Shown here: piece by piece, positions 28,970 to 55,178 of the stretch
How the letters are laid out: every line of letters starts with the position of its first letter
Numbering within the stretch: the first letter of the stretch is position 1
Assembly: GCA_028716845.1 (NCBI GenBank)
Contig: JAQUPF010000015.1
Location: forward strand, 1 to 55,178
Direction: 5' to 3'
Source: a bacterium
Lineage (GTDB): Bacteria > Auribacterota > Tritonobacteria > UBA1439
DNA length: 55,178 nucleotides
Position numbers and translations under genes: made by a program
Notes under the pieces: model-generated
Seen by the model: only the letters and a program-made list of their open reading frames with translations
Databases searched by the model: none
Told to the model about the DNA's origin: nothing

Positions 28970-29250
28970 AGGCGGGCGGCGGCGTCATCAGGAAGCCGAT
29001 CATCACCGAGAAGGCGACCGGCGGGTCGGAGGCGCATCGGAAGTACTGCTTCATGGTGGACCGCCGGGCGAACAAGATCGACATCAAGCGGGCGGTGGAG
29101 GCCGCGTTCAACGTGACGGTGACGAAGGTGAACACCTCCCGCGTCCGGGGGAAGCTCAAGCGCGTCCGCTGGCAGGTCGGCCGGACCTCCGACTGGAAGA
29201 AGGCCGTCGTCACCCTGCGGGAGGGGGACAAGATCGAGTACGCGACCTAG
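28966..29250 (+). CDS. rplW: 50S ribosomal protein L23
   Basis: A 94-residue protein at the tunnel exit that docks trigger factor and SRP. The start at 28966 overlaps the rplD stop as ATGA and gives the usual length. It shows [40 protein letters not shown] and the [19 protein letters not shown] loop. Confidence 0.97.
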
Positions 29251-29277
29251 CGGGACGGTCGAGGGACGGGGCAGGCG

Positions 29278-30117
29278 ATGGGATTGAAACGGTATAAACC
29301 GACGACGCCGAGCAGGCGCTGGATCACGGGGAGCGACTTCAGCGAGATCACCAGGCGCGCCCCCGAGCGGCGCCTGACGACGGCCCTCCGCCGGAAGGCG
29401 GGCCGGAATTTCACGGGGAGGATCACCGTCCGCCGCCGCGGCGGCGGACACCGGCGCCGCTACCGGATCGTCGATTTCAGGCGGGACAAGAGCGGCATCC
29501 CGGCGCGGGTCGCCGCCATCGAGTACGACCCGATCCGCTCGGCCCGGATCGCCCTCCTCCACTACGTGGACGGCGAGAAGCGGTACATCCTCGCGCCCGC
29601 GGGGCTCTCCGTCGGCGACCCGGTCGTCGCCGGCGACGGCGTCGAGCCGAGGGTGGGCAACTGCATGCCGCTCGCCCGGATCCCCCTCGGCACGCTCGTC
29701 CATAATGTCGAGCTCGCCGCCGGGAGGGGGGGGGTCCTCGTCCGGAGCGCGGGATCCGCCGCCGAACTGATGGCGCGCGAGGGCGGGTACGCCCACCTGC
29801 GGCTCCCCTCGGGCGAGGTGCGGCGCGTGAGCGAGCGGTGCGCGGCGACGATCGGGCAGATCGGCAACCCCGAGCACGAGGCGATGAGCCTCGGCAAGGC
29901 GGGCCGGTCGAGGTGGCTCGGGCGCCGGCCGAGGGTGCGCGGCGTCGCGATGAACCCCGTGGACCACCCGATGGGCGGCGGCGAGGGGAGGTCGAGCGGC
30001 GGCCGGCACCCGTGCTCGCCGACGGGGGTGCCCGCGAAGGGCGGCAAGACGCGGTCGCGGAGGAAGCCGTCGCGCGCCGTCGTCAGCCCGCGGGCGCGGA
30101 AGCGGCGGCGGAGGTAG
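29278..30117 (+). CDS. rplB: 50S ribosomal protein L2
   Basis: A 279-residue protein close to the peptidyl-transferase centre. It begins [15 protein letters not shown] and contains [20 protein letters not shown]. The C-terminal [20 protein letters not shown] carries the essential histidine region. The tail is rich in Arg/Lys. Standard length and place. Confidence 0.98.
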
Positions 30118-50412: not shown

Positions 50413-50763
50413 CGGCACGCCGGCAATGTACCCGGGCGGATGTCACACCGGGGATTATTTCTACCACTATAATCATCGCGGGGACGTGGTTTCCGTGACG
50501 GACTCGACCGGGAGCGAGGTCGCGCGGTATCGCTATGACGCGTTCGGGAATGTGGCGGAGAAAGCCGGCACATTCGACAGCCCGTATCAGTTCAGCACGA
50601 AGGAATATGATGATGCTGCAGGGCTCATCTATTATGGGTATCGGTATTACGATCCTGCGCACGGCGTCTGGCTGAGCAAGGATCCGATCGGTTACTACGA
50701 TGGACTGAATCTGTACGCGTTTGTCACCAATAATCCGGTAAACTGGGTGGATCCATATGGATT
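50413..50763. repeat. RHS core direct repeat, copy 1
   Basis: Nearly identical to 53197-53547 at the DNA level (offset 2784) and clearly related to copy 2 (about 51540-51965). Homology starts abruptly at 50413. Upstream DNA is unrelated, and an in-frame TGA sits at 50408-50410. This is therefore a displaced 3' module. Confidence 0.85.
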
Positions 50764-51064
50764 GGTATGGTGGTGGGTACCTGGTGTAGTTATTGGTGGC
50801 GGCATTGGTGGCGGAGGGTATTTGGTCAGCACTCCCTATTCCGAGTGGACATGGGGTGGCTTCTGGATTAATACTGGCTATAGAGCAGCGACAGGAGTCT
50901 TAATATCCACAGTTGGAATGGGAGCAATTGCGGGTAGTGGAGGTTTCGTTGCATATTACTTATATTCGAAAGAAGATTGGAGGTGGGGGGAACTTCTATA
51001 TAATGCGGCTTTGGGCGCAGGTCTAGGAGCGGGCGCGACTTCCCTAGGTAATATGTGCAAGTAG
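50426..51064 (+). CDS. Truncated RHS core module 1 with hydrophobic glycine-rich tip (tip A)
   Basis: A 212-residue open frame lacking the N-terminal RHS shell. Residues 1 to about 113 are the RHS-associated core (DYFYHYNHRGDVVSVTDSTG, YRYDAFGNVAEKAG, the signature GLIYYGYRYYDP and GVWLSKDPIGYYDGLNLYAF, ending VDPYGL). The tip follows at about residues 114-212: VWWWVPGVVIGGGIGGGGYL, GVLISTVGMGAIAGSGG and NAALGAGLGAGAT, ending NMCK. It looks membrane-active. The tip is AT-rich compared with the core. It may be silent as it stands, serving as a recombination cassette, or start at ATG 50426. A small membrane gene follows. Confidence 0.75.
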   Translation: MYPGGCHTGDYFYHYNHRGDVVSVTDSTGSEVARYRYDAFGNVAEKAGTFDSPYQFSTKEYDDAAGLIYYGYRYYDPAHGVWLSKDPIGYYDGLNLYAFVTNNPVNWVDPYGLVWWWVPGVVIGGGIGGGGYLVSTPYSEWTWGGFWINTGYRAATGVLISTVGMGAIAGSGGFVAYYLYSKEDWRWGELLYNAALGAGLGAGATSLGNMCK

Positions 51065-51089
51065 AACCATCAATGGAGATATTAGATAA

Positions 51090-51296
51090 ATGCCCTCTAA
51101 CATTACAACAACACGGGAAATTGGCCTGGTAGCGTCTGCCTTAATTCTCTCTGTTATTTATTACTTTGTATTTAGACGTGCCAATGAAGATCCAATCATA
51201 ACAATATTCAAAGCATGGCTGGTAGTTACGATTTTAACTATTGGATTTCATTGGGGCAATGTACTGCTAAGAATCATCAAGAGGGGAACGCTTTAG
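51090..51296 (+). CDS. Small two-span membrane protein 1, candidate immunity or partner of tip A
   Basis: A 68-residue protein, mostly two hydrophobic helices (IGLVASALILSVIYYFVF and IFKAWLVVTILTIGFHWGNV) joined by a short charged loop (RRANEDP). Paralogues are at 51347 and 53896. All share a leading I/R-E segment, YYF or FYF, the FKAW motif and a basic end (IIKRG or IKK). It begins 25 bases after the tip A stop, with GGAG upstream. Its position and size fit an immunity protein against a membrane-acting tip; that role is inference. Confidence 0.65.
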   Translation: MPSNITTTREIGLVASALILSVIYYFVFRRANEDPIITIFKAWLVVTILTIGFHWGNVLLRIIKRGTL

Positions 51297-51346
51297 CCTG
51301 ATCTATTCACTGAGTTGAGAGAATAGTCCGATTGTCAGGGGCCAAG

Positions 51347-51532
51347 GTGACTTCGATAAAGGAAACAGCGGTAGTTATAGTCGCTATCATTGTAACGATC
51401 GTCTATTACTTCATATTTAGAAAAGATAATGTACATCCATTTTTAACGGTTTTTAAAGCATGGCAAACAGGTGCAATGATTGCCATTACACTTTATGCCG
51501 CTAATGTATTTTTAAAGTTTATTAAGAAGTAA
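51347..51532 (+). CDS. Small two-span membrane protein 2 (orphan paralogue)
   Basis: 61 residues from the GTG at 51347, chosen because VTSIKETAVV then aligns with the MTTIKETALV start of the copy at 53896. An in-frame TTG at 51332 would add five residues. It has TIVYYFIFRKDNVHPFLTVF and KAWQTGAMIAITLYAANVFL, ending KFIKK. No tip gene precedes it: it follows another copy of the same family after about 50 bases. The RHS core copy 2 homology begins within about 10 bases of its stop and in the same frame. Confidence 0.6.
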   Translation: MTSIKETAVVIVAIIVTIVYYFIFRKDNVHPFLTVFKAWQTGAMIAITLYAANVFLKFIKK

Positions 51533-52246
51533 GTTTCTCTCGATGAGTTCGTTTCCTGCTACACGCGCGGGTCGAGCATGGGCGGAGGGATCAGCGGGAT
51601 AATCTCGATGCACCGCAACGGCACTCCCGAGGTGTATCCGAATGGCTTTGAGACGGGAGATTACTCTTACCACTTTAATCACCGGGGTGACGTGGTCAGT
51701 GTGACCGATTCCGCCGGCGTGGAGGTCGCCCACTATCGCTATGATGCGTTTGGAAAGGTGGCGGAGAAAGCCGGCACATTCGACAGCCCGTATCAGTTCA
51801 GCACGAAGGAATATGATGATGCATCAGGGCTCATCTATTATGGGTAGCGGTATTATGACCCTGCGCAAGGCGTCTGGCTGAGCAAGGATCCGGTCGGTTA
51901 CTACGACGGACTGAATCTGTACGCGTATGTAACCAATAATCCGGTCAATTGGATTGACCCTTTAGGACTCACAGATCGACCTTGGCCTGCAAATGGTGTA
52001 GTTGTCAATTATTCGAGCGGAACCGTTCAGGCGGTAGATATAGACAATCGGGAAGTGATTTATGTCTTTGGGGGAGGATTACGGTCCCCGATGTGGAGGG
52101 ATTATGATTTCGTAAAGGTACACGGGAAGTGGTACAAGATCGGCCCTTGGACTTATATCATTAATGAGAGTGGTACGCCGGCCTCTGGCTTTAGGGAAGC
52201 TACTAAAGATGAGCTCAATCAGATTAATGGAATCTTATGCAAGTGA
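51533..52246 (+). pseudogene. RHS core module 2 with a different tip (tip B), interrupted by TAG
   Basis: The frame opens right after the stop of the small membrane gene. It shows DEFVSCYTRGSSMGGGISGI, HRNGTPEVYPNGFETGDYSY and the usual core. At 51845-51847 a TAG replaces the TAT of the other copies, inside the GLIYYGYRYYDP signature. The same frame then continues with RYYDPAQGVWLSKDPVGYYD, NPVNWIDPLGL and a new tip of about 85 residues (VNYSSGTVQAVDIDNREVIY, GGGLRSPMWRDYDFVKVHGK, WYKIGPWTYIINESG), ending GILCK. Tip B is soluble-looking and unrelated to tip A. An internal ATG at 52055 could still express its last 63 residues. Confidence 0.75.
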
Positions 52247-52566
52247 AAAAGAAAATATTATTGATTTCGATTCCGACCCTAATCTGCTTCGCACTGTTCT
52301 TTAGTTCGCTAGTATCCTATCTGTTGGCGAATTTCCAATATGAAAGGTTGATCAGAATCAACCCTTCCGATAAAGCAGAACTGGAATGCTGCTTGTTTCT
52401 TTATTCAACGCGTATTATAGATATAAATAACTCTCTTTGGGGTACGAGATTGAGACTGCAAAATGGTGAATATTGCCAGAGCTATCGTATACTAGGTATA
52501 GAACCTATAGACGTAATTTATGATTCGAATAATAGAGTTAAAGAAATACTGCCATCTTTTGAATAG
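52237..52566 (+). CDS. Small signal-anchored protein, candidate partner of tip B
   Basis: A 109-residue protein that starts inside the last codons of tip B (10-base overlap). It has a short basic start, one strong membrane helix at about residues 6-30 (KILLISIPTLICFALFFSSL), then a polar domain with two adjacent cysteines (ELECCLFLYSTRIIDINNSL, RILGIEPIDVIYDSNNRVKE). It is unrelated to the FKAW family. The overlap with the tip and very AT-rich codon use fit a toxin/immunity pair; function unproven. Confidence 0.6.
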   Translation: MQVKKKILLISIPTLICFALFFSSLVSYLLANFQYERLIRINPSDKAELECCLFLYSTRIIDINNSLWGTRLRLQNGEYCQSYRILGIEPIDVIYDSNNRVKEILPSFE

Positions 52567-52648
52567 AAATACTGCAAACATTTAGCTTGGGTAATCTAAC
52601 ACGCCTGATGGGAGAGTCAGAACCTCGATATTCTCCCGAGACAACCAG

Positions 52649-53848
52649 ATGATCGGTAGTACTATGGGCGCGTTGGTGGATATAATCGGGAAGGCGGAGA
52701 ACGGTGACTGGCAGGTGAAGGTCAACGGCAATGATGCCATTGTTGAGAGTGACGGGACATTCATTTACGAAGGGCTTGATCTCACTCCGGGGCAGCACAG
52801 CGTGACGGCATCAGGGCTCAATCCTTCCACGCAGGAGACAGCTACGGATACCGTATCGATCGTCAAGCTCCCCGCGGAAGACATAAGCTACTCCTATGAT
52901 GCCCGCGGGAACATGACATCCCGGACGGGTGCCACGGGGACGACCATCTATACCTGGGACCAGCTGAACCGGCTGCTGGGGATAAGCCTCCCCGACGGGA
53001 CGAGGCAGCAGCATCACTATGACGCCGCGGGACGGAGACTGAAGAGTATCGAGAACGGCGTGGAGAGAAGGTTCGTGTACGACGGATGGAATGTGATCGG
53101 AGAAAGGCGCGCCGGGAGTGATGATTTCGTCTCCTACTACACGCGGGGGATTGATCTCGGGGGCGGGATCGGGGGCATCATCGCGGTCCATAGAAACGGC
53201 ACGCCGGCAATGTACCCGGGCGGATGTCACACCGGGGATTATTTCTACCACTATAATCATCGCGGGGACGTGGTTTCCGTGACGGACTCGAGCGGGAGCG
53301 AGGTCGCGCGGTATCGCTATGACGCGTTCGGGAATGTGGCGGAGAAAACCGGCACATTCGAGAGCCCGTACGGTTTCAGCACGAAGGAATATGATGATGC
53401 ATCAGGGCTCATCTATTATGGGTATCGGTATTACGATCCTGCGCAAGGCGTCTGGCTGAGCAAGGATCCGATCGGTTACTACGACGGATTGAATCTGTAT
53501 AGTTTCGTCACCAATAATCCTGTTAATATGGTAGATCCTCACGGGTTGGTGTGGTGGTGGGTTCCTGGTGTTGTTATTGGCGGTGCTGTAGGGGGGATAG
53601 GATATTCAATTACTACTCCACCTTCAGATTGGAGTTTAGTAGAGTTTATAGCTAATACTGGTGCAGGTGCAGTTACCGGAGTTTTAATATCCACATATGG
53701 AGCTGCTGCTCTTGTAGGAAGTGGGATAGGGCTTGGGTCACATTTGCTTACTAGTGATGAACCAAATGTTGGCGGAGCTATACTCAATGCTGCATTAGGT
53801 GCGGGCCTTGGGGCTGGTTCTACTTATGTAATAAACATGTGTAAATAA
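52649..53848 (+). CDS. Truncated RHS module 3 with YD repeats, core and glycine-rich tip (tip A')
   Basis: A 399-residue frame, open back to about 52595, so the ATG at 52649 is nominal and the 5' part is missing. Residues 1-78 resemble a small beta-sandwich or linker (DWQVKVNGNDAIVESDGTFI). YD/RHS repeats follow at 79-150 (YSYDARGNMTSRTGATGTTI, YTWDQLNRLLGI, HHYDAAGRRLKSI). The core is at about 150-295, with GLIYYGYRYYDPAQGVWLSK. The tip is homologous to tip A (VWWWVPGVVIGGAVGGIGYS, TGVLISTYGAAALVGSG, NAALGAGLGAGST, ending NMCK), but its DNA has diverged far more than the core. A small membrane gene follows 47 bases later. Confidence 0.78.
   Translation: MIGSTMGALVDIIGKAENGDWQVKVNGNDAIVESDGTFIYEGLDLTPGQHSVTASGLNPSTQETATDTVSIVKLPAEDISYSYDARGNMTSRTGATGTTIYTWDQLNRLLGISLPDGTRQQHHYDAAGRRLKSIENGVERRFVYDGWNVIGERRAGSDDFVSYYTRGIDLGGGIGGIIAVHRNGTPAMYPGGCHTGDYFYHYNHRGDVVSVTDSSGSEVARYRYDAFGNVAEKTGTFESPYGFSTKEYDDASGLIYYGYRYYDPAQGVWLSKDPIGYYDGLNLYSFVTNNPVNMVDPHGLVWWWVPGVVIGGAVGGIGYSITTPPSDWSLVEFIANTGAGAVTGVLISTYGAAALVGSGIGLGSHLLTSDEPNVGGAILNAALGAGLGAGSTYVINMCK
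53197..53547. repeat. RHS core direct repeat, copy 3
   Basis: Near-identical to 50413-50763. High core identity next to diverged tips indicates recent duplication or gene conversion of the core. Confidence 0.85.
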
Positions 53849-53895
53849 AATCTCATTAATCACAGGTAATAATCACAGGAGAGATGTTACCCCAT

Positions 53896-54081
53896 ATGAC
53901 AACTATCAAGGAAACTGCATTAGTTGCACTTTATTTGGCCGGGTCGGTATTGTTTTATTTTATTTTAAAAAGGGGGAATACACACCCATTAATAAACATT
54001 TTTAAAGCTTGGTTAATAGTTGCAATATTGGCAATTGGGTTATATTACGGGAATATAATTATCAAAATTATCAAAAAGTAA
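53896..54081 (+). CDS. Small two-span membrane protein 3, candidate partner of tip A'
   Basis: 61 residues from ATG 53896 (an in-frame ATG at 53884 would add four). It reads MTTIKETALVALYLAGSVLF, then YFILKRGNTHPLINIFKAWL and a second helix ending IIKIIKK. It is homologous to the proteins at 51090 and 51347, with the same FKAW motif and basic tail. It follows tip A' just as the first copy follows tip A. Candidate immunity protein; very AT-rich. 54082-54236 downstream shows no gene. Confidence 0.65.
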   Translation: MTTIKETALVALYLAGSVLFYFILKRGNTHPLINIFKAWLIVAILAIGLYYGNIIIKIIKK

Positions 54082-54236
54082 AAATTGTTGTCACCGGTCA
54101 CATCAAAACCAGCTAGTGAGTGATCGGATAATCAGGTAGGGTCCATACTATTTCGCACTTTGTATCGGAGCAGGTATTCTCTCTAGTCAGTGAGTTCCAT
54201 AAGCTAGCAATATCCCCTTTTCGTCCGGAATATAAT

Positions 54237-54542: not shown

Positions 54543-54950
54543 TTGGTGAAGGAGATGCGGCTGGAGGGGATCAGGACGAGGGAAAAAGGGAATGCGTTTC
54601 TGGAGAGGGGCTTTCTGAAAGACCTCAACGAGCGGTTCACGGTGGCTCCTCGGAGCGATGTTGATCTGCATCGCCCCGTACCTGAGGGACTGGATCTGAG
54701 GACTGTCTTCTGCTTCGAGGAGGATCGGGGGATAGACAATGACTGGACGGTGCGGTGGCACAACCGCATCTTCCAGATCAGAAAAGAGAACAGAGTGCTG
54801 CCTCCGGCGCGGAAGAAAGTGAAGGTGCAGGAGTGGCTTGATGGGAGCATCCACATCTTCTACAAGGGGGAAGAGGTCTCGTATGAGGAACTTGCTGAGA
54901 AACCAGTGAGGGCGAAGAAACAGATTGAAGCTACGGTGGCGACGAGAAGA
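54543..54950 (+). pseudogene. C-terminal fragment of an ISNCY-type transposase
   Basis: About 135 residues resembling the C-terminal part of ISNCY-group transposases: a block with DVDLHRPVPEGLDLRTVFCF, then NDWTVRWHNRIFQIRKEN and VKVQEWLDGSIHIFYKGEEV. The N-terminal helix-turn-helix and most of the catalytic core are absent. Homology seems to fade after about 54930; the frame runs on to 55025 with unrelated-looking residues. A relic of an insertion event at the edge of the RHS array. Confidence 0.65.
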
Positions 54951-55136
54951 TCCTGTACGCCAGCGCCGGATCACCCCTGGCGACGGTATCCCATAACGTC
55001 CATGGTGGCAGCCTCACCACGGTGAGATCGCTCGCTGTAGGCCATTTGAGAGGGTGGGTCTAATCGATGTTCACGCACAACGCGGGTTTTCCCCGCACAG
55101 CGGCTGTCTCAGTGAGGGGAAGGACATCTCTTCTAT

Positions 55137-55167
<31 letters not shown>

Positions 55168-55178
55168 ATTTTGGGGGG

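What the first reader, a model, noticed from the sequence alone, without database searches (positions are those of the whole stretch)
50413..54081. Array of displaced RHS core/tip modules, each followed by tiny membrane proteins: a candidate polymorphic toxin-immunity cassette bank
Three RHS cores lie in tandem, all lacking the large N-terminal shell. Two of them (copies 1 and 3) are nearly identical in DNA, yet their tips have diverged strongly; copy 2 carries an unrelated tip. Every tip is followed at once by a small membrane-protein gene. Seen: order, repeats, abrupt homology borders, AT-rich tips and partners. Known: RHS-CT systems keep orphan tip/immunity cassettes that recombine into a full-length rhs gene. 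Inferred: this is such a bank, with new tip and partner families.
Basis: partly seen in the sequence, partly recalled or inferred. Interest (0 to 1): 0.8.

Follow-up and report, generated by a model that had tools for sequence, protein, structure and literature searches.

The report
Orphan RHS toxin-tip and immunity modules
Next to each other in an uncultured bacterium lie several broken-off ends of large toxin-carrying (RHS) proteins, each followed by a small membrane protein that probably protects against it; the arrangement is a known kind of toxin-and-immunity store, but these tips and partners belong to families not seen before, and the full-length gene they should recombine with was not found in this genome.

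Summary
Three 5'-truncated RHS cores stand in tandem (copies 1 and 3 are 96% identical over 300 nt), with diverged or unrelated tips and a membrane-protein gene right behind each tip. Corrections: copy 2's core has an in-frame stop; copy 1 is followed by two paralogous partners; copy 2's partner is larger (109 aa, one hydrophobic segment). A fourth module (new tip plus an M50-like membrane protein) sits at the end of another contig that shares the window's terminal sequence, so the bank probably continues there. Between copies 1 and 3 the cores are young (dS 0.22), while tips and partners are saturated at synonymous sites, equally diverged in protein (dN 0.37 each) and under purifying selection. 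This fits displaced tip/partner cassettes recombining at the core border. Across the phylum, 6 of 7 pairs of homologous tips also have homologous partners. No full-length rhs parent and no type VI sheath gene was found in this genome. Tip 1/3 and partner families were found nowhere else. Best reading: an orphan RHS-CT/immunity island, a known kind, with new families. A membrane-pore mechanism for tips 1/3 (like Tse5-CT/Tsi5) is plausible but unproven.

The parts
50413..50764 (+). Module 1: 5'-truncated RHS core (no convincing start signal; only an internal ATG at 50426)
   Evidence: TIGR03696 E 4.8e-26; 5' homology border at 50413
50765..51064 (+). Module 1 tip: 99-aa glycine-rich hydrophobic C-terminus (VWWWVPGVV...NMCK)
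   Evidence: 56% identical to tip 3; no family in Pfam or NCBIfam
51090..51296 (+). Partner 1: 68-aa protein with two hydrophobic segments
51347..51532 (+). Partner 1b: paralogue of partners 1 and 3 without a tip of its own (listed as 51332-51532 with TTG; GTG 51347 with AGGGG upstream fits better)
   Evidence: 37% identical to partner 1; sequence read
51542..51970 (+). Module 2: 5'-truncated RHS core, most divergent copy, interrupted by TAG at 51845-51847
   Evidence: TIGR03696 E 1.2e-27 read across one TAG; core dS 0.6-0.9 to the others
51971..52243 (+). Module 2 tip: about 90-aa C-terminus, unrelated to tips 1/3
   Evidence: Only in this genome among 44 of the phylum
52237..52566 (+). Partner 2: 109 aa, one N-terminal hydrophobic segment, start overlaps the end of tip 2
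   Evidence: only in this genome
52649..53548 (+). Module 3: part of a beta-domain (weak Glucodextran_B match), YD repeats and RHS core
   Evidence: Four RHS_repeat stretches, TIGR03696 E 6.1e-26
53549..53848 (+). Module 3 tip: 99 aa, homologue of tip 1
53884..54081 (+). Partner 3: 65-aa protein with two hydrophobic segments, homologue of partner 1, AGGAG just upstream
   Evidence: sequence
54089..54134 (+). Scar matching the end of the IS21-like element that follows module 4 on contig C21
   Evidence: 25/25 and 92.5% over 40 nt to C21; 0 expected by chance
54543..55025 (+). ISNCY-family transposase, C-terminal fragment
   Evidence: NF033594 E 4.2e-26, profile positions 250-366 of 368
55069..55178 (+). 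Contig end shared with the end of contig C21 (91% over 110 nt; first 69 nt identical), running into a poly-C assembly artefact; links to module 4

Best explanation
This is an island of orphan RHS C-terminal toxin/immunity modules. Each module is a piece of RHS core (the recombination homology), a variable tip (the toxin) and a partner gene (the immunity protein). The tips are silent as they stand: the cores lack start signals or, in copy 2, carry a stop. They would be deployed only after homologous recombination through the conserved core into a full-length, secreted rhs gene. The partner genes have their own start signals, or are coupled to the tip end, and could be expressed now to protect against kin that carry the matching toxin. 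For tips 1 and 3 the most likely mode of action is insertion of glycine-rich helices into the target's inner membrane, countered by the two-helix membrane partner. The module order, borders, divergence pattern and linkage are shown; silence, recombination, toxicity, immunity and the membrane mode of action are inferred (the last at about 0.35).
For: Four truncated cores with three unrelated tip families and a partner behind each. Cores of copies 1 and 3 have dS 0.22, while tips (pS 0.75) and partners (pS 0.82) are saturated, Fisher P about 1e-11, so core and cassette have different histories. Tips and partners have the same dN (0.371 and 0.373) and pN well below pS (P below 1e-9), i.e. they diverged together under purifying selection. 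Tip-partner linkage in the phylum: 6 of 7 homologous tip pairs have homologous partners and no partner pair lacks a tip pair, P 1.5e-15. The island is absent beside bactofilin in the four relatives that have this neighbourhood. Salmonella orphan rhs-CT fragments have the same anatomy: displaced, usually without translation start, 522 bp at 95% identity to the main gene, with evidence of recombination (PMC3967940). Tse5-CT, an RHS tip, forms membrane pores, and its immunity protein Tsi5 has two predicted transmembrane regions (PMC9637101).
Against: No full-length rhs in the assembly, so the recombination partner is hypothetical here. The tip 1-3 and partner families have no homologue outside this genome in what was searched. 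Glycine-zipper motifs exceed composition in tip 3 (P 0.02) but not in tip 1 (P 0.43). Structure models are of low confidence (pLDDT 49 and 48).
Confidence: 0.82

Rival explanations
1. A graveyard: remnants of once full-length rhs loci broken up by insertion sequences, with no remaining function as a store. The parent has been lost and the modules are decaying. (This shares the anatomy of the best explanation and denies only that it still works.)
For: No parent in the genome; nonsense codon in copy 2; IS21-like and ISNCY remnants between modules; copy 1 has no start signal.
Against: All three tips and all four partners are still open, and tips/partners 1 and 3 show strong purifying selection, although that may date from before displacement. 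Young core divergence argues for recent core exchange or duplication.
Confidence: 0.4
2. An immunity archive: the partners, not the tips, are what selection keeps. Partners with their own ribosome-binding sites protect against kin or neighbours that carry the matching RHS toxins; the tips are passengers.
For: Partner 1b stands without a tip; an 87-aa two-helix ORF upstream of module 4 has no core; AGGAG/AGGGG before partners 3 and 1b. Orphan immunity proteins are proposed to protect against non-self effectors in Serratia (abstract of PMC10539506).
Against: Tips remain open and conserved too; no promoter excess in the region (6 found, 7.3 expected).
Confidence: 0.3
3. Copy 3 is itself an expressed, short RHS protein with its own toxin.
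For: 399-aa intact frame with YD repeats and a partner gene.
Against: No signal peptide and too few YD repeats to form a closed shell; it begins inside a beta-domain. The full-length phylum members read here are 1484 aa or longer with signal-like N-termini.
Confidence: 0.08

Closest known systems
Orphan rhs-CT/rhsI modules of Salmonella and other Enterobacteriaceae (Koskiniemi 2014, PMC3967940; C-terminal displacement, Jackson 2009, PMC2935791)
   Same: Displaced core fragment without start, tip after DPxGL, linked small immunity gene, several in a row, high core identity with divergent tips
   Different: No main rhs gene found in this assembly; other phylum; tip and partner families unrelated to any described in the libraries searched; no T6SS sheath gene
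Tse5-CT/Tsi5 of Pseudomonas aeruginosa (PMC9637101)
   Same: RHS C-terminal tip that is hydrophobic and alpha-helical by prediction, with an immunity protein of two predicted membrane segments
   Different: No sequence match of tip or partner to any solved structure; only core residues match Tse5; pore activity untested here
Glycine-zipper membrane-depolarising toxins (EsxX/ExiCD, TelE, TspA/TsaI; PMC12744356)
   Same: Glycine-rich membrane-active C-terminus, membrane-bound immunity proteins
   Different: T7SS-secreted carriers, not RHS; zipper motif is weak in tip 1

Membership tests
Orphan RHS-CT/immunity module | RHS-associated core domain followed by a variable tip after DPxGL | tested here: met
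   TIGR03696 in all copies; tips diverge right after DPxGL
Orphan RHS-CT/immunity module | Truncated: lacks the N-terminal shell and export/translation signals | tested here: met
   5, 33 and 205 aa open upstream of the core; copy 2 has a stop
Orphan RHS-CT/immunity module | Linked immunity gene directly downstream | tested here: met
   Partner ORF within -10 to +35 nt of each tip; linkage across the phylum. Immunity activity itself not tested
Orphan RHS-CT/immunity module | Full-length parent rhs in the same genome with matching core (usual, the source of the name; not needed for a module to be called displaced) | tested here: inconclusive
   No other core or YD repeat in the 2.68-Mb, 95% complete draft; a missing contig cannot be excluded
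Orphan RHS-CT/immunity module | Recombination of orphan tip into parent | not testable with these tools
   Needs strains or long reads; the dS contrast is indirect support
T6SS RHS effector (Tse5 type) | T6SS apparatus in the genome | tested here: not met
   VipB/TssC absent from this genome; 1 of 44 genomes of the phylum has it
Pore-forming RHS tip with membrane immunity (Tse5-CT/Tsi5 type) | Membrane-inserting tip and inner-membrane immunity protein | tested here: inconclusive
   Hydropathy compatible; structure models of low confidence; no sequence homology

The most novel reading that the evidence does not exclude
A parentless RHS bank in an uncultured phylum nearly without T6SS, whose tips (a glycine-rich membrane-active family paired with two-helix partners, and a short tip paired with an M50-protease-like membrane protein) are new toxin/immunity families, kept mainly as an immunity archive or a shared store that recombines with Sec-exported rhs genes of kin.
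Probability: 0.25. Interest if true: 0.5.

Novelty: new member of a known kind. Interest (0 to 1): 0.36.

Why it matters
It extends orphan RHS toxin/immunity banks, best studied in T6SS-bearing Proteobacteria, to a phylum whose RHS proteins seem to leave by a signal peptide. The core/tip contrast in synonymous divergence gives clean evidence of cassette exchange. The partners offer new candidate immunity proteins, one of them M50-protease-like, that can be tested directly.

Tried and rejected
A scan of 84,980 species' genomes for tip 1/3 returned one Subtercola locus; reading it showed a frame lying antisense to another ORF and with no RHS context, so it was rejected as chance. Viral contigs and plasmids gave nothing. 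Structure prediction of tip 3 and tip 2 gave unusable confidence, so no fold search was run. Contig C21's genes were not found beside bactofilin in the relatives, so synteny neither confirms nor refutes the C15-C21 join. The promoter scan was at chance. The shared C-terminal Cys (NMCK, ILCK, NICET) was considered as a motif; in copies 2 and 4 it overlaps the start codon of the partner, so it may follow from gene overlap.

Full report
Setting. The window is the whole contig C15 of a 2.68-Mb, 36-contig draft genome, 95% complete, from a phylum of which 44 genomes are held. The organism could not be named with the tools at hand. The finding lies at the right end of the contig.

What is there. The 300-nt repeat at 50413, 51619 and 53197 is the end of an RHS core; all three copies match TIGR03696. 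Module 1 begins abruptly at 50413 and has only an internal ATG. Module 2 begins near 51542 and carries TAG at 51845 in the conserved YYGYRYYDP motif. Module 3 keeps more: part of a beta-domain, YD repeats, then the core. After DPxGL the tips diverge: tips 1 and 3 are 99 aa, rich in Gly and hydrophobic residues, 56% identical; tip 2 is an unrelated piece of about 90 aa. Partners 1, 1b and 3 are paralogues with two hydrophobic segments. Partner 2 is 109 aa with one.

More of the same. A fourth core lies on contig C21, 1.2 kb from that contig's end, with a third kind of tip (78 aa, ending NICET). It is followed, with an 11-nt overlap, by a 313-aa membrane protein of the peptidase M50 family (PF02163, E 2.7e-10), and then by an IS21-like element (named from the two adjoining transposase-like ORFs, by eye). 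The ends of C15 and C21 share 69 identical nt that occur in full nowhere else in the genome, 91% over 110 nt. The two contigs are therefore probably neighbours, with module 4 about 2.3 kb downstream of partner 3 on the same strand. Between them lie an ISNCY transposase fragment and an 87-aa two-helix ORF overlapping a 65-aa ORF that may be a coreless tip remnant. A scar of the IS21-like end also sits 8 nt behind partner 3.

History. Between copies 1 and 3 the core has dS 0.22 and dN 0.05. The tip has pS 0.75 (saturated) and dN 0.371; the partner has pS 0.82 and dN 0.373. Core versus tip and core versus partner differ at synonymous sites with P about 1e-11, and nonsynonymous change is strongly depressed in both tip and partner. 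So the cassettes are old, coding and co-inherited, while the cores were exchanged or duplicated recently. That is the pattern of C-terminal displacement described for rhs genes (PMC2935791, listed; PMC3967940).

Relatives. RHS cores occur in 29 of 59 genomes searched, the own genome included; 44 of the 59 are of the phylum. Many are rows of truncated modules, some are full length. Of 54 modules with a tip, 50 have a downstream ORF in the expected place. Of 7 pairs of homologous tips, 6 have homologous partners, and there is no partner pair without a tip pair (P 1.5e-15; this includes tips 1/3 of the window). The downstream ORF was chosen mechanically, so the 39 of 50 with a hydrophobic segment is not a controlled figure, and related pairs are not independent, so the P value is a guide only. 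The window's own tip and partner families were found nowhere else in the phylum; tip 4 has only a marginal match. Four relatives with the same bactofilin neighbourhood lack the island there.

Parent and delivery. No other YD repeat or core exists in the assembly, so no full-length parent is known. This genome lacks the T6SS sheath gene. The full-length relatives read here (L070, L071, L072, L073) start with signal-peptide-like stretches (judged by eye), suggesting Sec export.

Mechanism. By analogy with Salmonella orphans, silent tips become weapons after recombination through the core into a full-length gene (PMC3967940). For tips 1/3 the closest functional parallel is Tse5-CT, a pore-forming RHS tip whose immunity protein Tsi5 has two predicted transmembrane regions (PMC9637101). 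This is likeness only: there is no sequence match, the zipper motif is weak and the models are poor.

Verdict. A real locus of a known kind in an unusual host: an orphan RHS tip/immunity island with new tip and partner families. Whether it is a working store, an immunity archive or a graveyard is open.

Noticed in passing
L003 336-1274 (-), contig C21 about 28975-29913: The partner of the fourth RHS tip is a peptidase M50-like membrane protein whose HExxH-like site reads HGFGH, an unusual candidate immunity protein.
   Followed up: partly
L003 2084-2541 (-): An 87-aa two-helix ORF overlapping a 65-aa Gly/Trp-rich ORF: possible coreless tip and partner remnant upstream of module 4.
   Followed up: no
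window 55140-55178: Long poly-C run then TCATTTTGGGGGG at the contig end: an assembly or sequencing artefact in a dispersed C-rich repeat, other partial copies of which lie on C11 and C19.
   Followed up: partly
window 54089-54134: IS21-like end scar just behind partner 3, matching the element just behind module 4: insertion sequences may move or fix the modules.
   Followed up: partly
L066, L068 and L069 (G009): A relative carries three homologous charged tips, each followed by a homologous 2-4-helix membrane partner: a second clear tip/partner family.
   Followed up: partly
L070 4857-5489, L062, L058: By eye, tips of other RHS genes of the phylum resemble phospholipase A2 (CEAHDHCY), an alpha/beta hydrolase (GHSHGG) and a caspase-like protease (YYGHA...LDSCYSG).
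   Followed up: no
window C-termini at 51064, 52243, 53848 and L003 1267: All tips end in a near-terminal Cys (NMCK, ILCK, NMCK, NICET), in two cases overlapping the partner's start codon.
   Followed up: partly
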